Source: Cloacibacillus evryensis DSM 19522 (GTDB taxonomy: Bacteria; Synergistota; Synergistia; Synergistales; Synergistaceae). Taken from it: DNA of 64,000 bases. Positions 7,132-63,705 of this stretch are shown here, piece after piece (within the stretch, counting starts at the first letter, position 1; each line of letters begins with the position of its first letter). Below the pieces are notes generated by a model. The model was given only the letters and a program-made list of their open reading frames with translations. It was not told the origin of the DNA and did no database searches. The translations under genes were made by a program, and so were the position numbers. The DNA is taken from positions 378,001-442,000 of the forward strand of contig NZ_KK073872.1 in assembly GCF_000585335.1 (NCBI RefSeq), written 5' to 3'.

Positions 7132-7206
7132 AAAAAAAGACTCCCGTCTCTTTGGACAGGAGTCATCATCGTAAAAACGAATTTCGGGCGAACTCCATCG
7201 CCCTCG
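7132..7206 (-). promoter_or_regulatory. Fluoride riboswitch (crcB motif) with terminator
   Basis: On the minus strand the leader reads GGGCGATGGAGTTCGCCC, then a hairpin, then GATGATGACTCCT, matching the crcB-motif pattern of GGCGAUGG...GUUCGCC...AUGAUG-CUCCU. It runs into a terminator with stem GACTCCCGTC/GACAGGAGTC (7139-7148, 7155-7164) and a T7 run. Fluoride binding should prevent terminator folding and turn on crcB. A TATAAT at 7217-7222 is placed to start this RNA. Confidence 0.92.
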
Positions 7207-7228
7207 TATGCGCATAATTATACCACCG

Positions 7229-34668: not shown

Positions 34669-34870
34669 ATAAACCAAAATCGCTGAATATCGACAATTTG
34701 CGTTTTGTGAGTGCCCGCTAAACCCCAATTTACCATTTATCTGATCGTTTTTGATGCGTTTGCCCTGCAATTTTCATAAAACAGCTTGACAAGAAATCCA
34801 TGTTAGTAATAATATTAAAAAATGCAGTCTTGAGTTATGAAATATCGGGACTATCCAATTGAATAGCGGC

Positions 34871-35039
34871 AAACGCGATGATGGAGTTACGGTTGCGAAT
34901 TTCGGATACTACAGACGGCCAGCGAACCAAAACAGCGTTTTTCTGTTTTGAGTGAGTCGGCTGGTCTTGCGGCATAAAAAACTAAATACTGTTAAAACGC
35001 GATGATGGAGTTACGGTTGCGAATTTCGGATACTACAGA
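34871..35039. repeat. 45-bp perfect direct repeat around a hairpin insert in the T-box leader
   Basis: The 45 bp at 34871-34915 recur without change at 34995-35039. The second copy is the 5' part of the T-box leader. The 79 bp between them contain the hairpin AAAACAG/CTGTTTT flanked by CGGCCAGC and GTCGGCTGG, which is the same framed hairpin found in element B copies. A hairpin insertion with duplication of leader sequence is the likely origin. Confidence 0.85.
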
Positions 35040-35251
35040 GAGTCGGCACGCAGGTGAGAGCCGATGTTGAAGAAGCGCAATACGGCCTCGCTCCGGAGCG
35101 GAATCCCCTAAGGCGAAAGCTGTTAAGGGATTACGGCTGGCCCCGTTACAGGCGCCAATGAGCGGCCGCGGATATTTCGCGGCAATCAGGGTGGTACCGC
35201 GATGATTTGTATATTCGTCCCTGAGGCATGTTATGCCTCGGGGATTTTTTT
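34995..35251 (+). promoter_or_regulatory. T-box leader controlling the LeuA-like gene
   Basis: The leader has an AGAGAGTCGGC...GGTGAGAGCCGA distal stem I, the T-box sequence AGGGTGGTACCGCG (35188-35201) and a terminator (CCTGAGGCAT/ATGCCTCGGGG followed by T7, ending 35251). Uncharged tRNA binding would favour the antiterminator and turn on the genes at 35316 and 36734. The specifier codon could not be fixed with confidence from reading alone. The gene context suggests a branched-chain amino acid tRNA. Confidence 0.93.
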
Positions 35252-35315: not shown

Positions 35316-36734
35316 ATGAAGAGAATCAAATTTACGGACATCACGCTGCGCGAGGCGGCGCGCGGACTTGAGGGGGCGCTCTCCTTCAAAGAAATCATAG
35401 AGATGGCAAAGATCCTCGACCGGCTCAACCTTGACGTTATCAGCCTCGCGCCGATCGCAAATGTGAAGATCGATTCGCTGCTGGTGCGCACGGTCGCGGC
35501 GGCGGTGAAGAAGAGCACGCTCTCCATGCCTGTCGGCTATACGGAGGCCGGGGTGGATACGGCGTGGAGCGCCGTCGCGGAGGCCGCGCATCCGCGCCTC
35601 TATGTGGAGGCGCCGCTCTCGGCGGTGCAGATGGAGTTTGTCTGCAATAAGAAGCCAGAAGGGATCATCGAGATGATCGGCAAGCTCGTGCGCAAGAGCC
35701 GCGGGCTTTGCGAAGATGTGGAGTTCGCCGCCGTCGACGCCACCCGCAGCGAGCCGGAGTTCCTCTATCAGGCGCTGCGTACGGCGCTCGCCGCCGGCGC
35801 TTCCACCGTGACGGTCTGCGATTCGGCGGGGACGATGATGCCCTACGAGTTCAATAATTTTGTCAAAGAGATATACGCCAACGTGCCGGAGCTCAAGGAG
35901 GCGGCGCTCGCCGTCAAGTGTTCCAACGAGCTTTCGATGGCGGCGGCCTGCGCGGTATCGGCCGTCAAGGCGGGAGCCTCCGAGGTCGACGTGGTCGTCA
36001 GCGGCGGCTGCGCGCCCGAGCTGGAGACGGCCTCGCACATCATCCGCACTCGCGGCGACGACTGCGGCTTTTTCAGCGGCATAAAGTACACGGAGCTGCA
36101 TCGCTCGATCGCGCAGATGCACTGGATCTCCCGCTCCGAGCGCAGCAAGACGAGCGCCTTTGACACGGGATTCTCAATATCCGACGGCTCGGGTATCAGG
36201 CTGGACGCGAACGACGATATCACCGCGGTCGGCAAGGCGGTGGAGCGTCTCGGCTACGACCTCTCGGAGGAGGATATGGTGAAGGTCTACGATACCTTTA
36301 TCAACGTCGCCGCCAAGAAGTCGGTTGGCACGAAGGAGCTGGAGGCGATCATCGCCACGAGCGCCCTGCAGGTGCCGCCGGCCTATGAGCTGGTGAGCTT
36401 TGTCATCAACAGCGGCAACGTCATCAGCGCGACGGCCAATATCCACTGCCGCCGCGACGGTGAGGATCTTTTCGGCCTCGCGGTCGGCGACGGGCCGATC
36501 GACGCCTCCTTCCTCGCGATCGAGCAGATCACCGGACACCATTACGAGCTCGACGATTTCCAGATTCAGGCCGTCACCGAGGGGCGCGAGGCGATGGGCT
36601 CGACGCTCGTCAAGCTCCGTTCTAACGGCAAGCTCTATTCCGGCAACGGGATTTCAACGGACATCATCGGTTCCAGCATCAGGGCCTATTTCAACGCCCT
36701 GAATAAGATTTCATACGAGGAGAATCACAGATAA
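35316..36734 (+). CDS. LeuA-like (isopropylmalate synthase family) protein lacking metal ligands
   Basis: The 472-residue protein has a HMGL-type TIM barrel (1-270), a linker (SDGSGIRLDANDDITAVGKA) and a LeuA-type allosteric domain (about 350-465, with ATANIHCRRDGEDLFGLAVG, then DGPIDASFLAIEQI). The hallmark residues are changed: TLRDGxQ reads TLREAARG, and the metal motif HxHND reads KCSNE, so both His ligands are missing. It may not catalyse a metal-dependent Claisen condensation. The ATG at 35316 follows AAAAGGAG after the T-box; its stop overlaps the next start (TAATG). Confidence 0.85.
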   Translation: MKRIKFTDITLREAARGLEGALSFKEIIEMAKILDRLNLDVISLAPIANVKIDSLLVRTVAAAVKKSTLSMPVGYTEAGVDTAWSAVAEAAHPRLYVEAPLSAVQMEFVCNKKPEGIIEMIGKLVRKSRGLCEDVEFAAVDATRSEPEFLYQALRTALAAGASTVTVCDSAGTMMPYEFNNFVKEIYANVPELKEAALAVKCSNELSMAAACAVSAVKAGASEVDVVVSGGCAPELETASHIIRTRGDDCGFFSGIKYTELHRSIAQMHWISRSERSKTSAFDTGFSISDGSGIRLDANDDITAVGKAVERLGYDLSEEDMVKVYDTFINVAAKKSVGTKELEAIIATSALQVPPAYELVSFVINSGNVISATANIHCRRDGEDLFGLAVGDGPIDASFLAIEQITGHHYELDDFQIQAVTEGREAMGSTLVKLRSNGKLYSGNGISTDIIGSSIRAYFNALNKISYEENHR

Positions 36735-39268
36735 TGAAGCTTTCATTTTCGACTTTCGGGTGGCATGACTATACATGGGAGGACTTCTGCGCCGTCGCCA
36801 AAGACGGCGGCTTCGCGGGGATAGAGGTACACAATATCCACGAGCCGACGCTCGTGAAGAAAAACAGTATCTTTGACCCGGCAAGGGCCAACGCCGCGCA
36901 CCGCGAGATGACCGAGGCTGGGCTTTCGATCCCCTGCATCGACGCCTGGCATAATATCGCAGACGGCGCGAAGTTTGAAGACAACTGCGCCGAGATCATG
37001 GATTATATCAATACCGCGAAGAGCCTGCGCGTACCCTATGTGCGCCTCGGCGCGAAGGATACGGGAAGTTCGTTCGCGGATGAGCGCGCCGCGGTGATGA
37101 GGGTGCTGGAAAAAATGCTGCCCGCCGCGCAGGAGGCCGGCGTGACGCTGCTGATCGAGACCATAGGGATATTTTCCGATACCGATAAACTCTGCGATGT
37201 GCTCAATTCCTTCTCCTGCGACAACCTCGCCGCGCTCTGGGATATGCAGCATACCTTCCGCGACGCGGGCGAGGCGCCGGAAAAAACGGTCAAGAATCTC
37301 GGCGCCTATATCAAACATGTGCACCTGAAGGATTCCGACGTCGTTGACGGCGTGATGGAGTACCGTCTCATCTGCGAGGGCAGCCTGCCGGTCGACGCGA
37401 TGATGCGCGCCCTCTATTCGCTGAACTATGACGGTTTTATCTCGATGGAGTGGGACCCTCAGTGGGTGCCCGATATCGAGAGCATCGAGCTGATCTCCCT
37501 GCATTTTGTAAATACGATGAACCGTTTCGGCAACCCCGCGCGCATGGTGAAATCGAAGCGCCTTTATGAGAACAAGCGCGGCACGGGGCTCTATCCGTGG
37601 CAGAAGGACAAGCTGATCGAAAAGACCTTCGGCGCGGTGCTTGACCGTGTCGTCGAGGAATTTCCCGACCAGTACGCCTTTAAATACACGACGCTCAACT
37701 ACACGCGGACCTATTCGGAGTTCCGCGACGACGTCGACGAATTCGCGCGCGCGCTGATCTCGCTCGGCGTGGGCCCCGGCAGCCACGTGGCGATCTGGGC
37801 GACGAACCTGCCCCAGTGGTACGTCACCTTCTGGGCGACGACGAAGATCGGCGCGGTGTTGGTCACCGTCAACACCGCCTACAAGATCCACGAGGCCGAG
37901 TACCTGCTGCGGCAGTCCGATACCCACACGCTCGTGATGATCAAGGGCTTCCGCGATTCGCACTATGACGAGATCGTCAAAGAGCTCTGTCCCGAACTGG
38001 AGACCGCCGCGGCCGGCAAGCCGCTGGCCTGCCGCCGCCTGCCCTTCCTGCGCAACGTCATCACCGTCGATTTCAAGATGAAGGGATGCCTTACCTGGGA
38101 AGAGGCCGTCTCCCGCGCGCACATGACGCCGCTGGAGGAGGTGCACCGCCTCGCCGCCGCCGTCGACATCCATGACGTCTGCAATATGCAGTACACCAGC
38201 GGTACCACGGGCTTCCCCAAAGGCGTCATGCTCACGCACTACAACGTCGTCAACAACGGCAAGTGCATCGGCGACCGCATGGACCTCTCGACGGCCGACC
38301 GCATGATGATCCAGGTGCCGATGTTCCATTGCTTCGGGATGGTGCTCGCGATGACTGCCTCGATGACGCACGCCGCCACGCTGTCGCCGCTGCCCTATTT
38401 CTCGACGAAGGCCTCGCTCGCCTGCATCAATCAGGAGCGCATCACCTGCTTCCACGGCGTGCCGACGATGTTCATCGCGATGATGGAGCATGAGGATTTC
38501 GACAAAACCGACTTTTCCTACATGCGCACGGGGATCATGGCGGGCAGCCCCTGTCCGATCTCAAAGATGCGCGACGTCGTCGACAAGATGAATATGAAGG
38601 AGATCGTCATCGTCTACGGACAGACGGAGGCCTCGCCGGGCTGCACGATGAGCGACACCGGCGACTCTCTGGAGGTGCGCGTCGAGACCGTCGGACACGC
38701 GCTGCCGGAGATCGAGTGCCGCGTGGTGGACCCGGAGACGGGCGAAGAGCTGCCCGACGAGGTGCCGGGAGAGTTCGTCGCGCGCGGCTACAATATAATG
38801 AAGGGCTACTACAAGATGCCCGAGGCGACGGCGGCGGCGATCGACGCCGACGGCTGGCTTCACACGGGAGATCTCGCCTGCCGCACGGCGGCGGGAGATT
38901 ACCGCATTACGGGCCGCCTGAAGGATATGATCATCCGCGGCGGCGAGAACATCTATCCGAAGGAGCTGGAGGAGTTCCTCTACACGCATCCGAAGGTCAA
39001 GGATGTGCAGGTGATAGGCGTCCCCGACGAAGCGCTCGGCGAGGAGATCTGCGCCTGCGTCGTGCTCAAGGAGGGGGAGGAGGCCACAGAGGCCGAGATC
39101 AAAGAATTTTTCCTCTCGCACATGGCGCGCCACAAGTGCCCGCGGTATATCGACTTCGTCGATGATTTCCCGATGAACGCGGCGGGGAAGATCCTGAAAT
39201 ACAAGATGCGCGAGGACGCGGTGAAGAAGTACGGGCTGGAGAATGCGGCGGCCGTCAAAACCGCTTAA
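36734..39268 (+). CDS. Fusion of a sugar-isomerase-like TIM barrel and an acyl-CoA synthetase
   Basis: Residues 1-265 form a xylose-isomerase/AP-endonuclease-2-type TIM barrel (start MKLSFSTFGWHDYTWEDFC, metal-site Glu and His in LLIETIG, ALWDMQHT, HVHLKD and ISMEWDP). Residues about 275-844 are a FadD-type AMP-forming ligase: YTSGTTGFPKGVMLTH, YGQTEASP, GWLHTGD, GRLKDMIIRGGENIYP and the catalytic Lys in AAGKILKYKMRE. No stop or frameshift lies between, so it is one polypeptide. It is coupled to the LeuA-like gene and under the same T-box. The substrate acid is unknown. Confidence 0.9.
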   Translation: MKLSFSTFGWHDYTWEDFCAVAKDGGFAGIEVHNIHEPTLVKKNSIFDPARANAAHREMTEAGLSIPCIDAWHNIADGAKFEDNCAEIMDYINTAKSLRVPYVRLGAKDTGSSFADERAAVMRVLEKMLPAAQEAGVTLLIETIGIFSDTDKLCDVLNSFSCDNLAALWDMQHTFRDAGEAPEKTVKNLGAYIKHVHLKDSDVVDGVMEYRLICEGSLPVDAMMRALYSLNYDGFISMEWDPQWVPDIESIELISLHFVNTMNRFGNPARMVKSKRLYENKRGTGLYPWQKDKLIEKTFGAVLDRVVEEFPDQYAFKYTTLNYTRTYSEFRDDVDEFARALISLGVGPGSHVAIWATNLPQWYVTFWATTKIGAVLVTVNTAYKIHEAEYLLRQSDTHTLVMIKGFRDSHYDEIVKELCPELETAAAGKPLACRRLPFLRNVITVDFKMKGCLTWEEAVSRAHMTPLEEVHRLAAAVDIHDVCNMQYTSGTTGFPKGVMLTHYNVVNNGKCIGDRMDLSTADRMMIQVPMFHCFGMVLAMTASMTHAATLSPLPYFSTKASLACINQERITCFHGVPTMFIAMMEHEDFDKTDFSYMRTGIMAGSPCPISKMRDVVDKMNMKEIVIVYGQTEASPGCTMSDTGDSLEVRVETVGHALPEIECRVVDPETGEELPDEVPGEFVARGYNIMKGYYKMPEATAAAIDADGWLHTGDLACRTAAGDYRITGRLKDMIIRGGENIYPKELEEFLYTHPKVKDVQVIGVPDEALGEEICACVVLKEGEEATEAEIKEFFLSHMARHKCPRYIDFVDDFPMNAAGKILKYKMREDAVKKYGLENAAAVKTA

Positions 39269-39344: not shown

Positions 39345-39604
39345 TTAAGCCTCCCTCGCCGAGGCGGCCAGGGAGCCAAATCAGAGTTTTTCTGATTTGT
39401 GCGACTCGGCTGGCAGTTACACCAGAGGTGGTAGCCGCGTGTTTTTTGCGGCTGACGGAAGGAGTGTTGCACTGTGCGGCGCATGTTTTCAGCGCCACGC
39501 AGTGCCCGCGGCGGAAGCCGCGGAAGGCCAAAGACAAAACCAAGGTCAAATCTCCTCCACCCGCCTGCGGCGGGAGCCCCCTCGGAGAGGGAGCCTTTTA
39601 AAGG
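39345..39604. repeat. Element B, copy 2
   Basis: It has the frame of copy 1, with an added framed hairpin AAATCAG/CTGATTT (39378-39398, inside GGGAGCC...GTGCGACTCGGCTGG). The second stem is CACTGTGCGGCGC/GCGCCACGCAGTG. It ends CCCCCTCGGAGAGGGAGCC, the intact form of the site hit by the IS in copy 3. Between the fusion gene stop (39268) and this copy lies a partial element A (ACCGGCGTTTTGG and TAAACGCCGATTT). Confidence 0.85.
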
Positions 39605-53487: not shown

Positions 53488-53826
53488 TTAAAGCCTCCCT
53501 CGCCGAGGCGGCCAGGGAGCCAAATCAGAGTTTTTCTGATTTGTGCGAATCGGCTGGTAGGCACACCAGAGGTGGCAGCCGCACGTTTTTTACGATTTAT
53601 GCTTTTAAAGCCTCCCTCGCCGAGGGAGGTGGCATGACGCGGTGTTTTTCCGCGTCATGACGGAAGGAGTGTTGCTCCGTTTGGCGCGCGGTTTTCGCGC
53701 CGAACGGAGCCCGCGGCGACAGCCGCGGAAGAAGCGGAAGATGATAAGATCAAGAGCAAAGCACAACCCAAGGTCAAAACTCCTTCCGGCCCTTCGGGCC
53801 ACCTCCCTCGGCGAGGGAGGCAAGGG
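53488..53826. repeat. Element B, copy 4 (two units in tandem)
   Basis: A partial unit (53488-53600, with hairpin AAATCAG/CTGATTT) is joined to a full unit (from about 53605). The full unit has stems GACGCGG/CCGCGTC, CTCCGTTTGGCGCG/CGCGCCGAACGGAG, CCGCGGC/GCCGCGG and GGCCC/GGGCC, and ends CCTCCCTCGGCGAGGGAGG. Confidence 0.85.
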
Positions 53827-59192: not shown

Positions 59193-59505
59193 TTTAAAGG
59201 CTCCCTCTCCGAGGCGGCCAGGGAGCCAAATCAGTGTTTTTCTGATTTGTGCGAATCGGCTGGTAGTTACACCAGGGCTGGCTCGGCGGTGTTTTTCCGC
59301 CGAGACTGGAGGAGTTTTGACCTTGGGTTTTGTGTTGCTCTTGATCTTATCTTCTTTCGCCTCTTCAGTGGGAGAGGATAAGGCCAGAACAAAAACAAAA
59401 CCCAAAGTCAACCCTCCTCACCCCGCTTCGCGGGGAGCTAAGCGACTCGCACAAAACGAAAAAACATCGTTTTGGCTCCCTGCTTATCGGCGAGGGAGCC
59501 TTTAA
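59193..59505. repeat. Element B, copy 5
   Basis: It has outer arms GGCTCCCTCTCCGAGG and CGGCGAGGGAGCC, hairpin AAATCAG/CTGATTT (59228-59248), CGGCGG/CCGCCG, a shortened middle, and a reversed hairpin AAAACGA/TCGTTTT (59453-59473) in the same frame GGCTCCCTGC. Between this element and the next gene is a further short stem CAATCACCCG/CGGGCGATTG (about 59667-59688). Confidence 0.85.
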
Positions 59506-59752: not shown

Positions 59753-62700
59753 GTGCGCAAAGACGGCAAAAGGTTCAGTTTATATTTGATCGCGGCGTTG
59801 ATCCTGGTTTCGATAGCATCGTTCATGATGCTGCGTTCGGAGGCGGAGGATTTGCAGCTGACGAAGGATAGCGCCGGTTATTATCTGATCGCGACGTCGG
59901 CGGACCTCAAGCAGTTCAGGGAGGCGGTCAACGCGGGCAGCAAGGACATCAACGCTAAGCTGACGGCGAACATCGACCTTGAAGGCACGTCGGACAACCA
60001 ATGGACGCCGATCCGCAGTTTCAGCGGCACATTCGACGGCGGCGGCTTCACGATCAGCGGCCTCTATATCAATGAGGGTAATAGTGAAAATAAGGGCTTC
60101 ATCGGGACCCTCGCCGGCGGAGCGGAGGTCAGCGGCCTGACGATCGAGGGCACGGTAATCGGCGGAGGGACTCTCGGCGGCATCGTGGGGAAGAACAATG
60201 GCACGGTGAAGAACTGCGCGTCGAACTGCGAAAAAGTCAGCGGCAGCGAAGACTATGTCGGCGGCATCGTGGGGGAGAACAATGGCACGGTGACGAACTG
60301 CGCGTCGAACTGCGGGGCAGTCAGCGGCATCGGCAGCTTTGGCGGCGTCGTCGGGTGGAATAACACGGGCACGGTGACGAACTGCGCGTCGAACTGCAAA
60401 ACAGTCAGCGGTAGCGTCCACGCCGGAGGCATCGTCGGGAGGAACGGCAGTGTGTCCGGCACAACCAGAGGCACGGTGACGAACTGCGCGTCGAACTGCG
60501 TGGCAGTCAGCGGCAGCGGCGACTCTGGCGGCGTCGTCGGGTGGAATAACAAGGGCACGGTGACGAACTGCGCGTCGAACTGCGGGGCAGTCAGCGGTGG
60601 CAAAAATGTCGGCGGCGTCGTCGGGATTAGCGATGGCACGGTGACGAACTGCGCGTCGAACTGCGGGGCAGTCAGCGGCAGCGACTATGTCGGCGGCGTC
60701 GTCGGGCGGAACATGAACGCCACAGGCACGGTGACGAACTGCGGCTGGCTTTATACAACAACAACAACAAGCGTGCCGAGCGTCGGCGTCGGCGCCGGCA
60801 ATAGCACGCACGTCGTCTCCTACGACGCGGATGCCTCCAAGACGGTCGTGACCGCCTGCGTGAGCCCGCTCTCCGTCACGGTCGCCAAAGACCGCTCGGC
60901 TGTCGTGCCGTTTGCGCTCGCGCCGGGCGCGGATGCCTCCGCCGCGATGTATATCGAGACCTTAAGCGCCGACGTTGCAAGCGCCGGCATTGCCTCGGCG
61001 GATGTTGCTTCCGGCAAAGTCACCGTCACCGGCCGGAACTACGGAACGACGGCCATGGCGGTCAGCTACAAATTCAAATACACAGACTTCTCCAAGACGC
61101 CGCTAAGCGTCTCAGACGGCTCGGTGGCGGTCAGCGCCAACGTGGGGATAACCGTACAGGATTTCGCGGTAACGCCGAAATCGGCGACGATCGCGGTCGG
61201 CGGCACATCTAAGCTTACCGCCTCCGGCGGTTCCGCCGCGGGCGGCGTAACGTGGGACGTGTCGGGTGACGCCGTTTCGCTCGACAAGAAGGATGGAACC
61301 TCTATAGCGGCCACAGGCGTCCGCAGAGGTACGGCGACGGTGACGGCGACGACCAAAGACGGCGAGACGGACTACTGCGACATTACGGTAAATCCCGCGA
61401 CCGACCCAGCCGACCCGCTTCCGGCCGAAAACCAGACGGACAAAGACGGTACCGGCTCCGGCGTCCTCATCATCAGCCCCGACACATACGAATCGTTCAA
61501 AGTCTATGACGCTTTAATAAAACTGGGCGAAGAGGGCAGACTCCCCGACGGCATCACGATAGCATCGTTAGACGCAGTGCCAGCCGCAAGCACCGACCTT
61601 TCGATCGACTGCTACATCCAAGGCACAGGCGGCAAGACCAGCGGCGACATTATTGCCGGGGCTATAAAGGATTACTGGGGCATCACCGACACGTCGCCGG
61701 AAAAGCTGCGTCTCGTCAGCGCCGTCAGCGCGACCGCACACGCAGGTTCTGACGAAACAACGCTTGCCAAATTCTGGCGCATCCTCGTCGATGAGGTGCG
61801 GAAGTTGCTCGGCTATGACAACGATAAATCAACGGACAGCGCATATCTGCCTCTTCAGACGAACTTCACGATAACGTCGGCGGACATTGCCCTGCTCTCG
61901 GACGACATCAAGACAGAACTGAACGCCGGCAACCTTCTGGATAAAGTAAACCTCTTCGCCGTCGTAAAGAGCGGAGACGAATACGCCGCCAGGAGCCTCA
62001 ACGACGCCGCCGACAACTCCGGCGCGTCCCGCGGCAAATACATGACCGTCAGCGAAGACAAAGACGGCAATTACAGGATAAGCACGCGCATAATGCTCTT
62101 CAACTTGCCCGGCACCGTATCGGGCGACAAGACGATGGGCGCGAGCTGGATACTCCCGATATCGTCCGACAAGACCTCCGACGACTACTTCCTCGTCCAG
62201 GACGGAGCAAAGGACGATACATACGCCGTTGCAATGGCCCTCGCCGTAAAGACACCCAACTACGCCACAGTCCATATAGCCACAGACACCACATCCGGCG
62301 ATACGCCAGTCTCATACGACACAGCCGTAACAGGCAAAAAAGGCTACAGTGAGAAGATAACCTCGTCCGACTGGTCGAACGCCGAAATGTCCGGCGACGT
62401 CTACACCGTGACGTTCGCAAAGGTCGCAGGCTACTCCATCAGCGTCAACGACGGCTCCGAAGCTTACACAGTAAGCAAAGACCTCGCGTGGGGAGCGAGC
62501 TGGGACGTCAAGGCGACATACAGCAAGATATACGTCTCCGGCGTATCGCTCGACAAAACGGCGCTCGTCCTCGCCCCCGGCGGAAGCGACAAACTGACCG
62601 CCACGGTCACGCCAGACGACGCCTACGCCAAAGACGTAACATGGACGACAAGCGACAAAAACATCGCCGAAATCGCGGCGGACGGCACGGTAACGGCGAA

Positions 62701-63520: not shown

Positions 63521-63705
63521 ATCGGCGTTTATAAGCACGATTTGCGTCATAACTTAGGGCTCTGGCGTCCTCGCCGTATTAATATACGGCTCCGGTTCCA
63601 GAGCCCAAAGTTATTTAGCAACTCGCACTTCTGGTGAACAAATTAAGCGATTCACACGAAACGCAAAACCGGCGTTTTGGTTCACTGCTTATAAACGCCG
63701 ATTTA
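63518..63705. repeat. Element A, copy 7 (long form)
   Basis: It has the standard arms, inner stem ACTTAGGGCTCTGG/CCAGAGCCCAAAGT, loop hairpin CCGTAT/ATACGG, and a side hairpin AAACGC/GCGTTT before the right arm. It is a close copy of element 4. The first TAA is the stop codon of the GLUG protein gene. Confidence 0.9.

What the first reader, a model, noticed from the sequence alone, without database searches (positions are those of the whole stretch)
34871..35251. Hairpin insertion into a T-box leader with a 45-bp duplication
Forty-five bases of the T-box leader's 5' part are present twice without a single change (34871-34915 and 34995-35039). The 79 bp between contain the framed hairpin of the element B family. 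This looks like a mobile hairpin that inserted and duplicated its target, far longer than the 2-9 bp made by usual transposases, or like a replication-slippage event templated by the hairpin. It also leaves the T-box with two possible 5' halves, which could compete in folding.
Basis: partly seen in the sequence, partly recalled or inferred. Interest (0 to 1): 0.65.

Follow-up and report, generated by a model that had tools for sequence, protein, structure and literature searches.

The report
Mobile hairpin beside duplicated gene ends
A 60-base mobile hairpin sits between two copies of the front part of a leucine-sensing RNA switch, and the same arrangement recurs at a tRNA gene and three protein genes in this bacterium and its close relative, so a hairpin that invades essential sequences seems to leave behind a spare piece that keeps them working.

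Summary
A 45-bp sequence occurs twice without change (34871-34915, 34995-35039), with a family hairpin between the copies. The downstream copy belongs to a complete T-box; the upstream copy is an orphan joined directly to the hairpin's 5' end. The hairpin, called E here, has strong compensatory base-pair support and about 60 nt including an 11-nt tail. It occurs in several Synergistaceae genomes. Five loci in two genomes show the same layout of orphan end, E and complete unit: this T-box, tRNA-Arg (shared by both genomes), rplS, an aminotransferase gene and an ABC-transporter gene. Twelve relatives lack the duplication, and one of them has E without the orphan copy. However, E also sits in a spare 5S rRNA gene and in several repeats with no target duplication, so the long duplication is not its ordinary insertion footprint. 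I infer that E inserts cleanly and that only rearranged versions, which re-copy or recombine the unit's end, survive in single-copy units. The two copies then stay alike by gene conversion, or the orphan is lost. The mobilising enzyme and the duplication step are unknown.

The parts
34786..34815 (+). promoter-like TTGACA / AATAAT or TAATAT upstream of the leader
   Evidence: consensus scan, (10-11 of 12 matches); the same layout is readable in the relatives' leaders
34871..34915 (+). orphan copy (R1) of the T-box 5' part, in the ancestral upstream context and ending exactly at the hairpin
   Evidence: exact repeat; its left flank (ATTGAATAGCGGC) matches the single-copy leader of same-genus G001
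34916..34964 (+). hairpin of the mobile element E: 5-bp outer stem, conserved internal loop with tandem G.A, inner stem
   Evidence: covariance model 72.9 bits, (a training sequence); 20 family members, 97.6% of cells paired, 11 of 17 pairs with changes on both sides
34965..34975 (+). 11-nt tail of E (TCTTGCGGCAT)
   Evidence: same-length tails in other copies; 11-nt tail TTTGTTTGTTA at the clean insertion in 5S rRNA
34976..34994 (+). probable start of the second copy: diverged pre-T-box flank
   Evidence: resembles the pre-T-box flank of G029, G014 and G020; inferred
34995..35039 (+). functional copy (R2): 5' strand of T-box stem I
   Evidence: exact repeat; inside the Rfam T-box match
34993..35225 (+). 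complete T-box leader
   Evidence: RF00230, 96.5 bits, E 5.9e-20
35087..35089 (+). probable specifier triplet CUC (Leu)
   Evidence: position relative to the stem I base in the alignment and conservation of CUC-R-CUCC in relatives; inference
35217..35251 (+). intrinsic terminator of the T-box
35316..36734 (+). regulated gene: isopropylmalate-synthase-like (HMGL-like plus LeuA_dimer domains)
   Evidence: Pfam; below NCBIfam equivalog cut-offs
39365..39413 (+). other family hairpin
53509..53557 (+). other family hairpin
59215..59263 (+). other family hairpin
59438..59486 (-). other family hairpin (TAAGC outer stem)
63643..63691 (-). other family hairpin (TAAGC outer stem)

Best explanation
E is a short non-coding mobile element: a 49-nt structured hairpin plus an 11-nt tail. 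It inserts precisely, without a target duplication, mostly between a base A and a G. Shown: clean insertion in a spare 5S rRNA gene and in several repeats, and a precise 5' end everywhere. In single-copy functional units a clean insertion would break the unit. There E is found as orphan unit end | E | complete unit. Inferred: these survivors arose when E's exact 5' end was joined inside the unit while its other side was sealed by re-copying or recombining the unit's terminal part, about 63 to 134 bp back, from an intact allele. The unit behind E therefore stays whole and the old end remains as an orphan. Partly shown: such modules pass between related genomes by recombination. The G000 leader is a mosaic of sister-species-like ends around an E plus stem I tract resembling G020. 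Shown at tRNA-Arg: the two copies stay identical by concerted evolution. Inferred: in some lineages the orphan is lost. In the T-box the downstream copy carries the regulation; the orphan and hairpin form a transcribed 5' extension with no proven role.
For: Five loci with R | E | R: T-box (G000), tRNA-Arg in G000 and G001, rplS, aminotransferase, ABC ATPase. Hairpin covariation. Clean zero-duplication insertion GTGGGA|E|GAGTAGG in the second of two tandem 5S genes of G001, and empty versus filled repeat sites. Concerted evolution at tRNA-Arg: both copies GGAGATTCGAACTCC in G001, both GGGGATTCGAACCCC in G000. G000 leader mosaic: stem I remainder 90% identical to G020 but 69% to G001; the rest of the T-box 96% to G001 and 83% to G020. 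At rplS and the aminotransferase gene the two copies differ at their ends almost only by synonymous or stop-codon changes.
Against: No mobilising enzyme was identified. No strain-level empty site for this T-box exists in the data. The spacing after subtracting the hairpin is 75, 75 and 74 nt at three of the five loci (P about 0.005-0.025 post hoc), which random re-copying would not predict and which hints at a defined-length mechanism. The clean sites, apart from 5S rRNA, lie in repeats.
Confidence: 0.5

Rival explanations
1. True long target-site duplication: the element's own insertion chemistry cuts the two strands about 64 bp apart (72 and 134 in other cases), and gene conversion later keeps the functional part identical.
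For: Five loci, E's exact 5' end at the junction each time, spacing minus hairpin of 75, 75, 74, 83 and 145 nt; at tRNA-Arg in G001 the diverged duplicate reaches back to the element's tail.
Against: Clean insertions with no duplication in 5S rRNA and at repeat sites; synonymous divergence at both ends of the rplS and aminotransferase copies is not expected of a fresh copy.
Confidence: 0.22
2. Att-like module: E travels with the end of a gene, T-box or tRNA, as integrative elements do, and integrates by recombination at the matching end of a resident unit, restoring it with its own version.
For: Targets are tRNA 3' end, gene 3' ends and a leader 5' end; restored ends carry their own stop codons and synonymous changes; G020 carries E plus T-box without the orphan.
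Against: The carried end differs at every locus, so one att specificity cannot explain it; the module would be only 116-194 bp and no integrase was linked to it (not searched).
Confidence: 0.15
3. Ordinary slippage or tandem duplication at this leader, with the hairpin as an unrelated neighbour.
For: Direct repeats can arise by replication slippage near hairpins.
Against: Of 7 isolated close repeats in 2.06 Mb, the two with a model-supported hairpin between are this T-box and tRNA-Arg; the junction is exactly at E's first base at five loci.
Confidence: 0.06
4. The partial second T-box half plus hairpin is kept because it regulates, for example by folding competition or as a second tRNA contact.
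For: Perfect identity of the copies; partially tandem T-boxes of unknown mode of action are mentioned in a review (PMC7583486).
Against: Identity is explained by concerted evolution seen at tRNA-Arg; the orphan lacks specifier and antiterminator; forced pairing of the orphan is 4.4 kcal/mol worse; G020 has no such copy.
Confidence: 0.07

Closest known systems
REP / REPIN elements mobilised by RAYT (IS200/IS605-type tyrosine transposases)
   Same: Short dispersed imperfect hairpins, structured on one strand, in intergenic mosaics; IS200/IS605 members make no larger target duplication (PMC2817692).
   Different: REPs end in a GTAG tag (PMC3733652), which this copy lacks; no Y1_Tnp gene was found in this genome; E is about 60 nt with a fixed-length tail and a tandem G.A internal loop.
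Rickettsia palindromic elements and CGTC-tagged repeats
   Same: Palindromic repeats that insert into functional genes, with no known transposase (PMC3733652, PMC10969869).
   Different: RPEs are about 150 bp and are read through in frame; E instead leaves an orphan end and a complete unit.
tRNA- and gene-end-specific integrative elements (general knowledge)
   Same: The target's end is restored by a second copy, giving attL/attR-like repeats.
   Different: E is about 60 nt, carries no gene, and its 'att' sequence differs at every locus.
Partially tandem T-box riboswitches
   Same: A leader with an extra partial T-box (PMC7583486).
   Different: Here the extra half has a visible origin, a mobile hairpin, and recurs at units that are not riboswitches.

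Membership tests
T-box leader (RF00230) | Match to the curated covariance model above the gathering score | tested here: met
   96.5 bits against 93, 34993-35225, full model 1-219
T-box leader (RF00230) | Specifier codon matching the amino acid of the regulated pathway | tested here: inconclusive
   CUC (Leu) assigned by position upstream of a LeuA-like gene; inference, no tRNA binding test
Tandem T-box | Two complete T-boxes in one leader | tested here: not met
   Only one match even at E up to 5; the upstream copy is 45 nt of stem I
REP/RAYT | GTAG-type tag at the foot of the hairpin | tested here: not met
   This copy has GTCTTGC after the stem; some other copies read GTAG at the 3' foot, but it is not conserved
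REP/RAYT | RAYT (Y1_Tnp) gene in the genome | tested here: not met
   PF01797: 0 matches in G000; 5 of 14 control genomes positive
MITE | Short target-site duplication flanking each copy | tested here: not met
   Zero duplication at 5S rRNA and repeat sites; about 30 to 134 bp at the five unit-end loci
MITE | Autonomous partner sharing the termini | not tested
   No search for a larger element with E-like ends was made beyond PF01797
Integrative element with att sites | Element-borne or trans-acting integrase | not tested
Known Rfam RNA family for the hairpin | Rfam match | tested here: not met
   No Rfam family overlaps 34916-34992 at E up to 5

The most novel reading that the evidence does not exclude
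A gene-less hairpin of about 60 nt uses an unknown host or trans-acting enzyme to insert at A|G sites and, in single-copy units, couples insertion to copying back a defined length (about 64 bp). It would thus be a self-repairing mobile element that spares the gene it hits.
Probability: 0.2. Interest if true: 0.85.

Novelty: new variant of a known kind. Interest (0 to 1): 0.58.

Why it matters
It gives a concrete origin for a partially tandem riboswitch: a mobile hairpin that landed in it, not regulation. It also shows a small palindromic repeat family, apparently without a RAYT, repeatedly entering a tRNA gene, a ribosomal protein gene, an rRNA gene and a riboswitch while the functional unit stays intact. 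How short palindromic repeats spread in bacteria lacking RAYT genes is open. The exact 5' junctions, the clean 5S insertion and the duplicated unit ends make the mechanism testable.

Tried and rejected
(1) At first I read the 45-bp repeat as unrelated to the hairpin, because G020 has the hairpin without the repeat; rejected when four further loci with the same layout appeared. (2) I took the spacer AAAAACTAAATA as an element tail shared with rplS; rejected, because it resembles the T-box's own upstream flank and the rplS stretch encodes the gene's last codons. (3) RAYT mobilisation: no Y1_Tnp in this genome. (4) Carriage by phages: no match of two family patterns in IMG/VR. (5) Dating by the 100% identity: invalid given concerted evolution at tRNA-Arg. 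(6) Known Rfam hairpin: none. (8) Literature searches for a described Synergistaceae palindromic family or long target duplications of this kind found nothing close; only open-access papers are held.

Full report
Observation. The two 45-nt copies are exact and 124 bp apart. The downstream copy is the 5' strand of stem I of a full T-box (34993-35225, 96.5 bits) ahead of an isopropylmalate-synthase-like gene (HMGL-like plus LeuA_dimer). By position in the T-box the specifier is probably CUC, leucine (inference). The upstream copy lies behind the promoter and is cut exactly where the hairpin begins.

Relatives. The same gene and leader were compared in 12 relatives. None has a repeat in the leader (longest exact repeat below the 12-nt seed). 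Same-genus G001 has one T-box and no hairpin, and its flank ATTGAATAGCGGC-AAACGCG matches the flank of the upstream copy here. So the upstream copy sits in the old context. G020, another genus, has the hairpin directly 5' of its single T-box and no orphan. The G000 leader is a mosaic: the stem I remainder is 90% identical to G020 and 69% to G001, while the following antiterminator part is 96% identical to G001 and 83% to G020. I read this as import of an E plus stem I tract by recombination.

The hairpin family. Pattern searches gave 16 strict copies in this genome, 11 in G001, 3 in G020 and 1 in G021, and none in 49 other family members; a second outer-stem type is frequent in G004. In all, 58 distinct hairpins share AG-N-GA-R-CC / G-N-G-Y-GA-N-TC with variable stems. 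Fifty-four keep all five outer pairs although the search did not ask for them. On 20 members of equal length 97.6% of pair cells are standard, 11 of 17 pairs show changes on both sides, and no shuffle reaches the covariation score. The tandem G.A means that only one strand makes this fold, which suggests a structured single strand as the recognised form (inference). No Y1_Tnp gene was found in this genome, no Rfam family matches, and two patterns found nothing in IMG/VR.

Recurrence of the duplication. Scanning the copies for flanking repeats, plus a covariance search of sampled stretches, gave five loci with the layout orphan end | E | complete unit. These are: T-box (G000); tRNA-Arg(CCG), in both G001 and G000; rplS in G001, R1/R2 53/64 with one mismatch in the last 46; an aminotransferase gene end in G001, exact core 65; and the end of an ABC ATPase gene that overlaps the next gene in G000, 29/30. 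In every case E's first base abuts the orphan and the copy behind E's tail completes the unit. Spacing minus hairpin length is 75, 75, 74, 83 and 145 nt. Three of five within 1 nt has P of about 0.005-0.025 under uniform models, post hoc. Base rate: in 2.06 Mb only 7 isolated close repeat pairs were seen; the two with a model-supported hairpin between are the T-box and tRNA-Arg (the ABC case, with a mismatch, fell below that scan's threshold). This shows that hairpin and duplication belong together.

Not an ordinary footprint. In G001 a second, tandem 5S rRNA gene is interrupted by E with no duplication: GTGGGA|E(61 nt)|GAGTAGG, next to an intact 5S. Repeat sites also show clean insertion: AAATCGGCGTTTA|GAAGTGCG, empty at window 45218 and filled in L185 and L188; CTGATTA|GATGTGCC, empty in L038 and filled in L133; GGTCCA|GCG, empty in L257 and filled in L343. 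The T-box junction CAGA|GAG is the same kind of target. So the element inserts cleanly where the target is redundant. At single-copy units the surviving form carries a second copy of the end. I infer that the rest are lost because the unit would be broken.

History of the copies. At tRNA-Arg G001 has GGAGATTCGAACTCC in both copies and G000 has GGGGATTCGAACCCC in both, although the insertion is shared. This is concerted evolution, so perfect identity at the T-box does not date the event. At rplS and the aminotransferase gene the copies differ at their ends by synonymous or stop-codon changes, with one exception (H/N in rplS). That fits alleles that evolved as working genes in different lineages and were then joined. 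Orphans are also lost: E without an orphan at rplS in G000 and at the T-box in G020.

Effect on the T-box. Forcing stem I through the downstream copy gives -74.1 kcal/mol against -69.7 through the orphan; neither is the overall minimum (-79.0), so this is weak evidence. The orphan lacks specifier and antiterminator. I expect the downstream copy to do the work. A review notes that the modes of action of partially tandem T-boxes are unknown (PMC7583486); this case suggests that at least some may be insertion relics.

Limits. Only species representatives were available. Genome searches were exhausted before an integrase or other mobilising enzyme could be sought. About 1.26 Mb of G000 and 0.8 Mb of G001 were sampled, not the whole genomes. 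The 11-nt tail and the 63-134-bp duplicated lengths rest on assuming a fixed element length. Deposited organism names are not shown for the window's own genome; the nearest named records are Synergistaceae.

Noticed in passing
L254:16655-17282 (G000:866655-867282): Array of 30-bp direct repeats GAAGATAAAGTTCCTTTGAGGATTGGAAAG with about 66-bp spacing: a CRISPR array.
   Followed up: no
L336:18877-19054 (G001:638877-639054): A second, tandem 5S rRNA gene downstream of an rrn operon is split by a family hairpin with no target duplication; the first 5S is intact.
   Followed up: yes
L239 reverse strand 888-1511 (G020:C64): tRNA-Arg carries a different insert of about 580 bp with a DinJ-like antitoxin reading frame and its own 42-bp tRNA-end duplication.
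   Followed up: partly
L230:1884-1941 (G000 rplS downstream): The E copy here is a perfect palindrome of the 3' arm (TAAGCGACTCACACAAAACGC...), scoring on both strands; arm replacement looks like templated correction.
   Followed up: no
L038 about 2700-2900: In G004 the same T-box leader is interrupted between stem I and the antiterminator by a nested palindromic composite of about 180-190 bp.
   Followed up: no
window 36734-39268: Fused reading frame: xylose-isomerase-like TIM barrel plus acyl-CoA-ligase-like AMP-binding enzyme behind the LeuA-like gene.
   Followed up: no
window 7150-7211 (-): Fluoride riboswitch, 40.7 bits.
   Followed up: no
window 60116-60707: Imperfect tandem repeats of about 84 bp, probably coding.
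   Followed up: no
L131:1508-1560: In the aminotransferase locus the hairpin loop (CCGTTCCTGC) is exactly complementary to the start of the downstream tail (GCAGGAACGG): a possible pseudoknot or templated copy.
   Followed up: no
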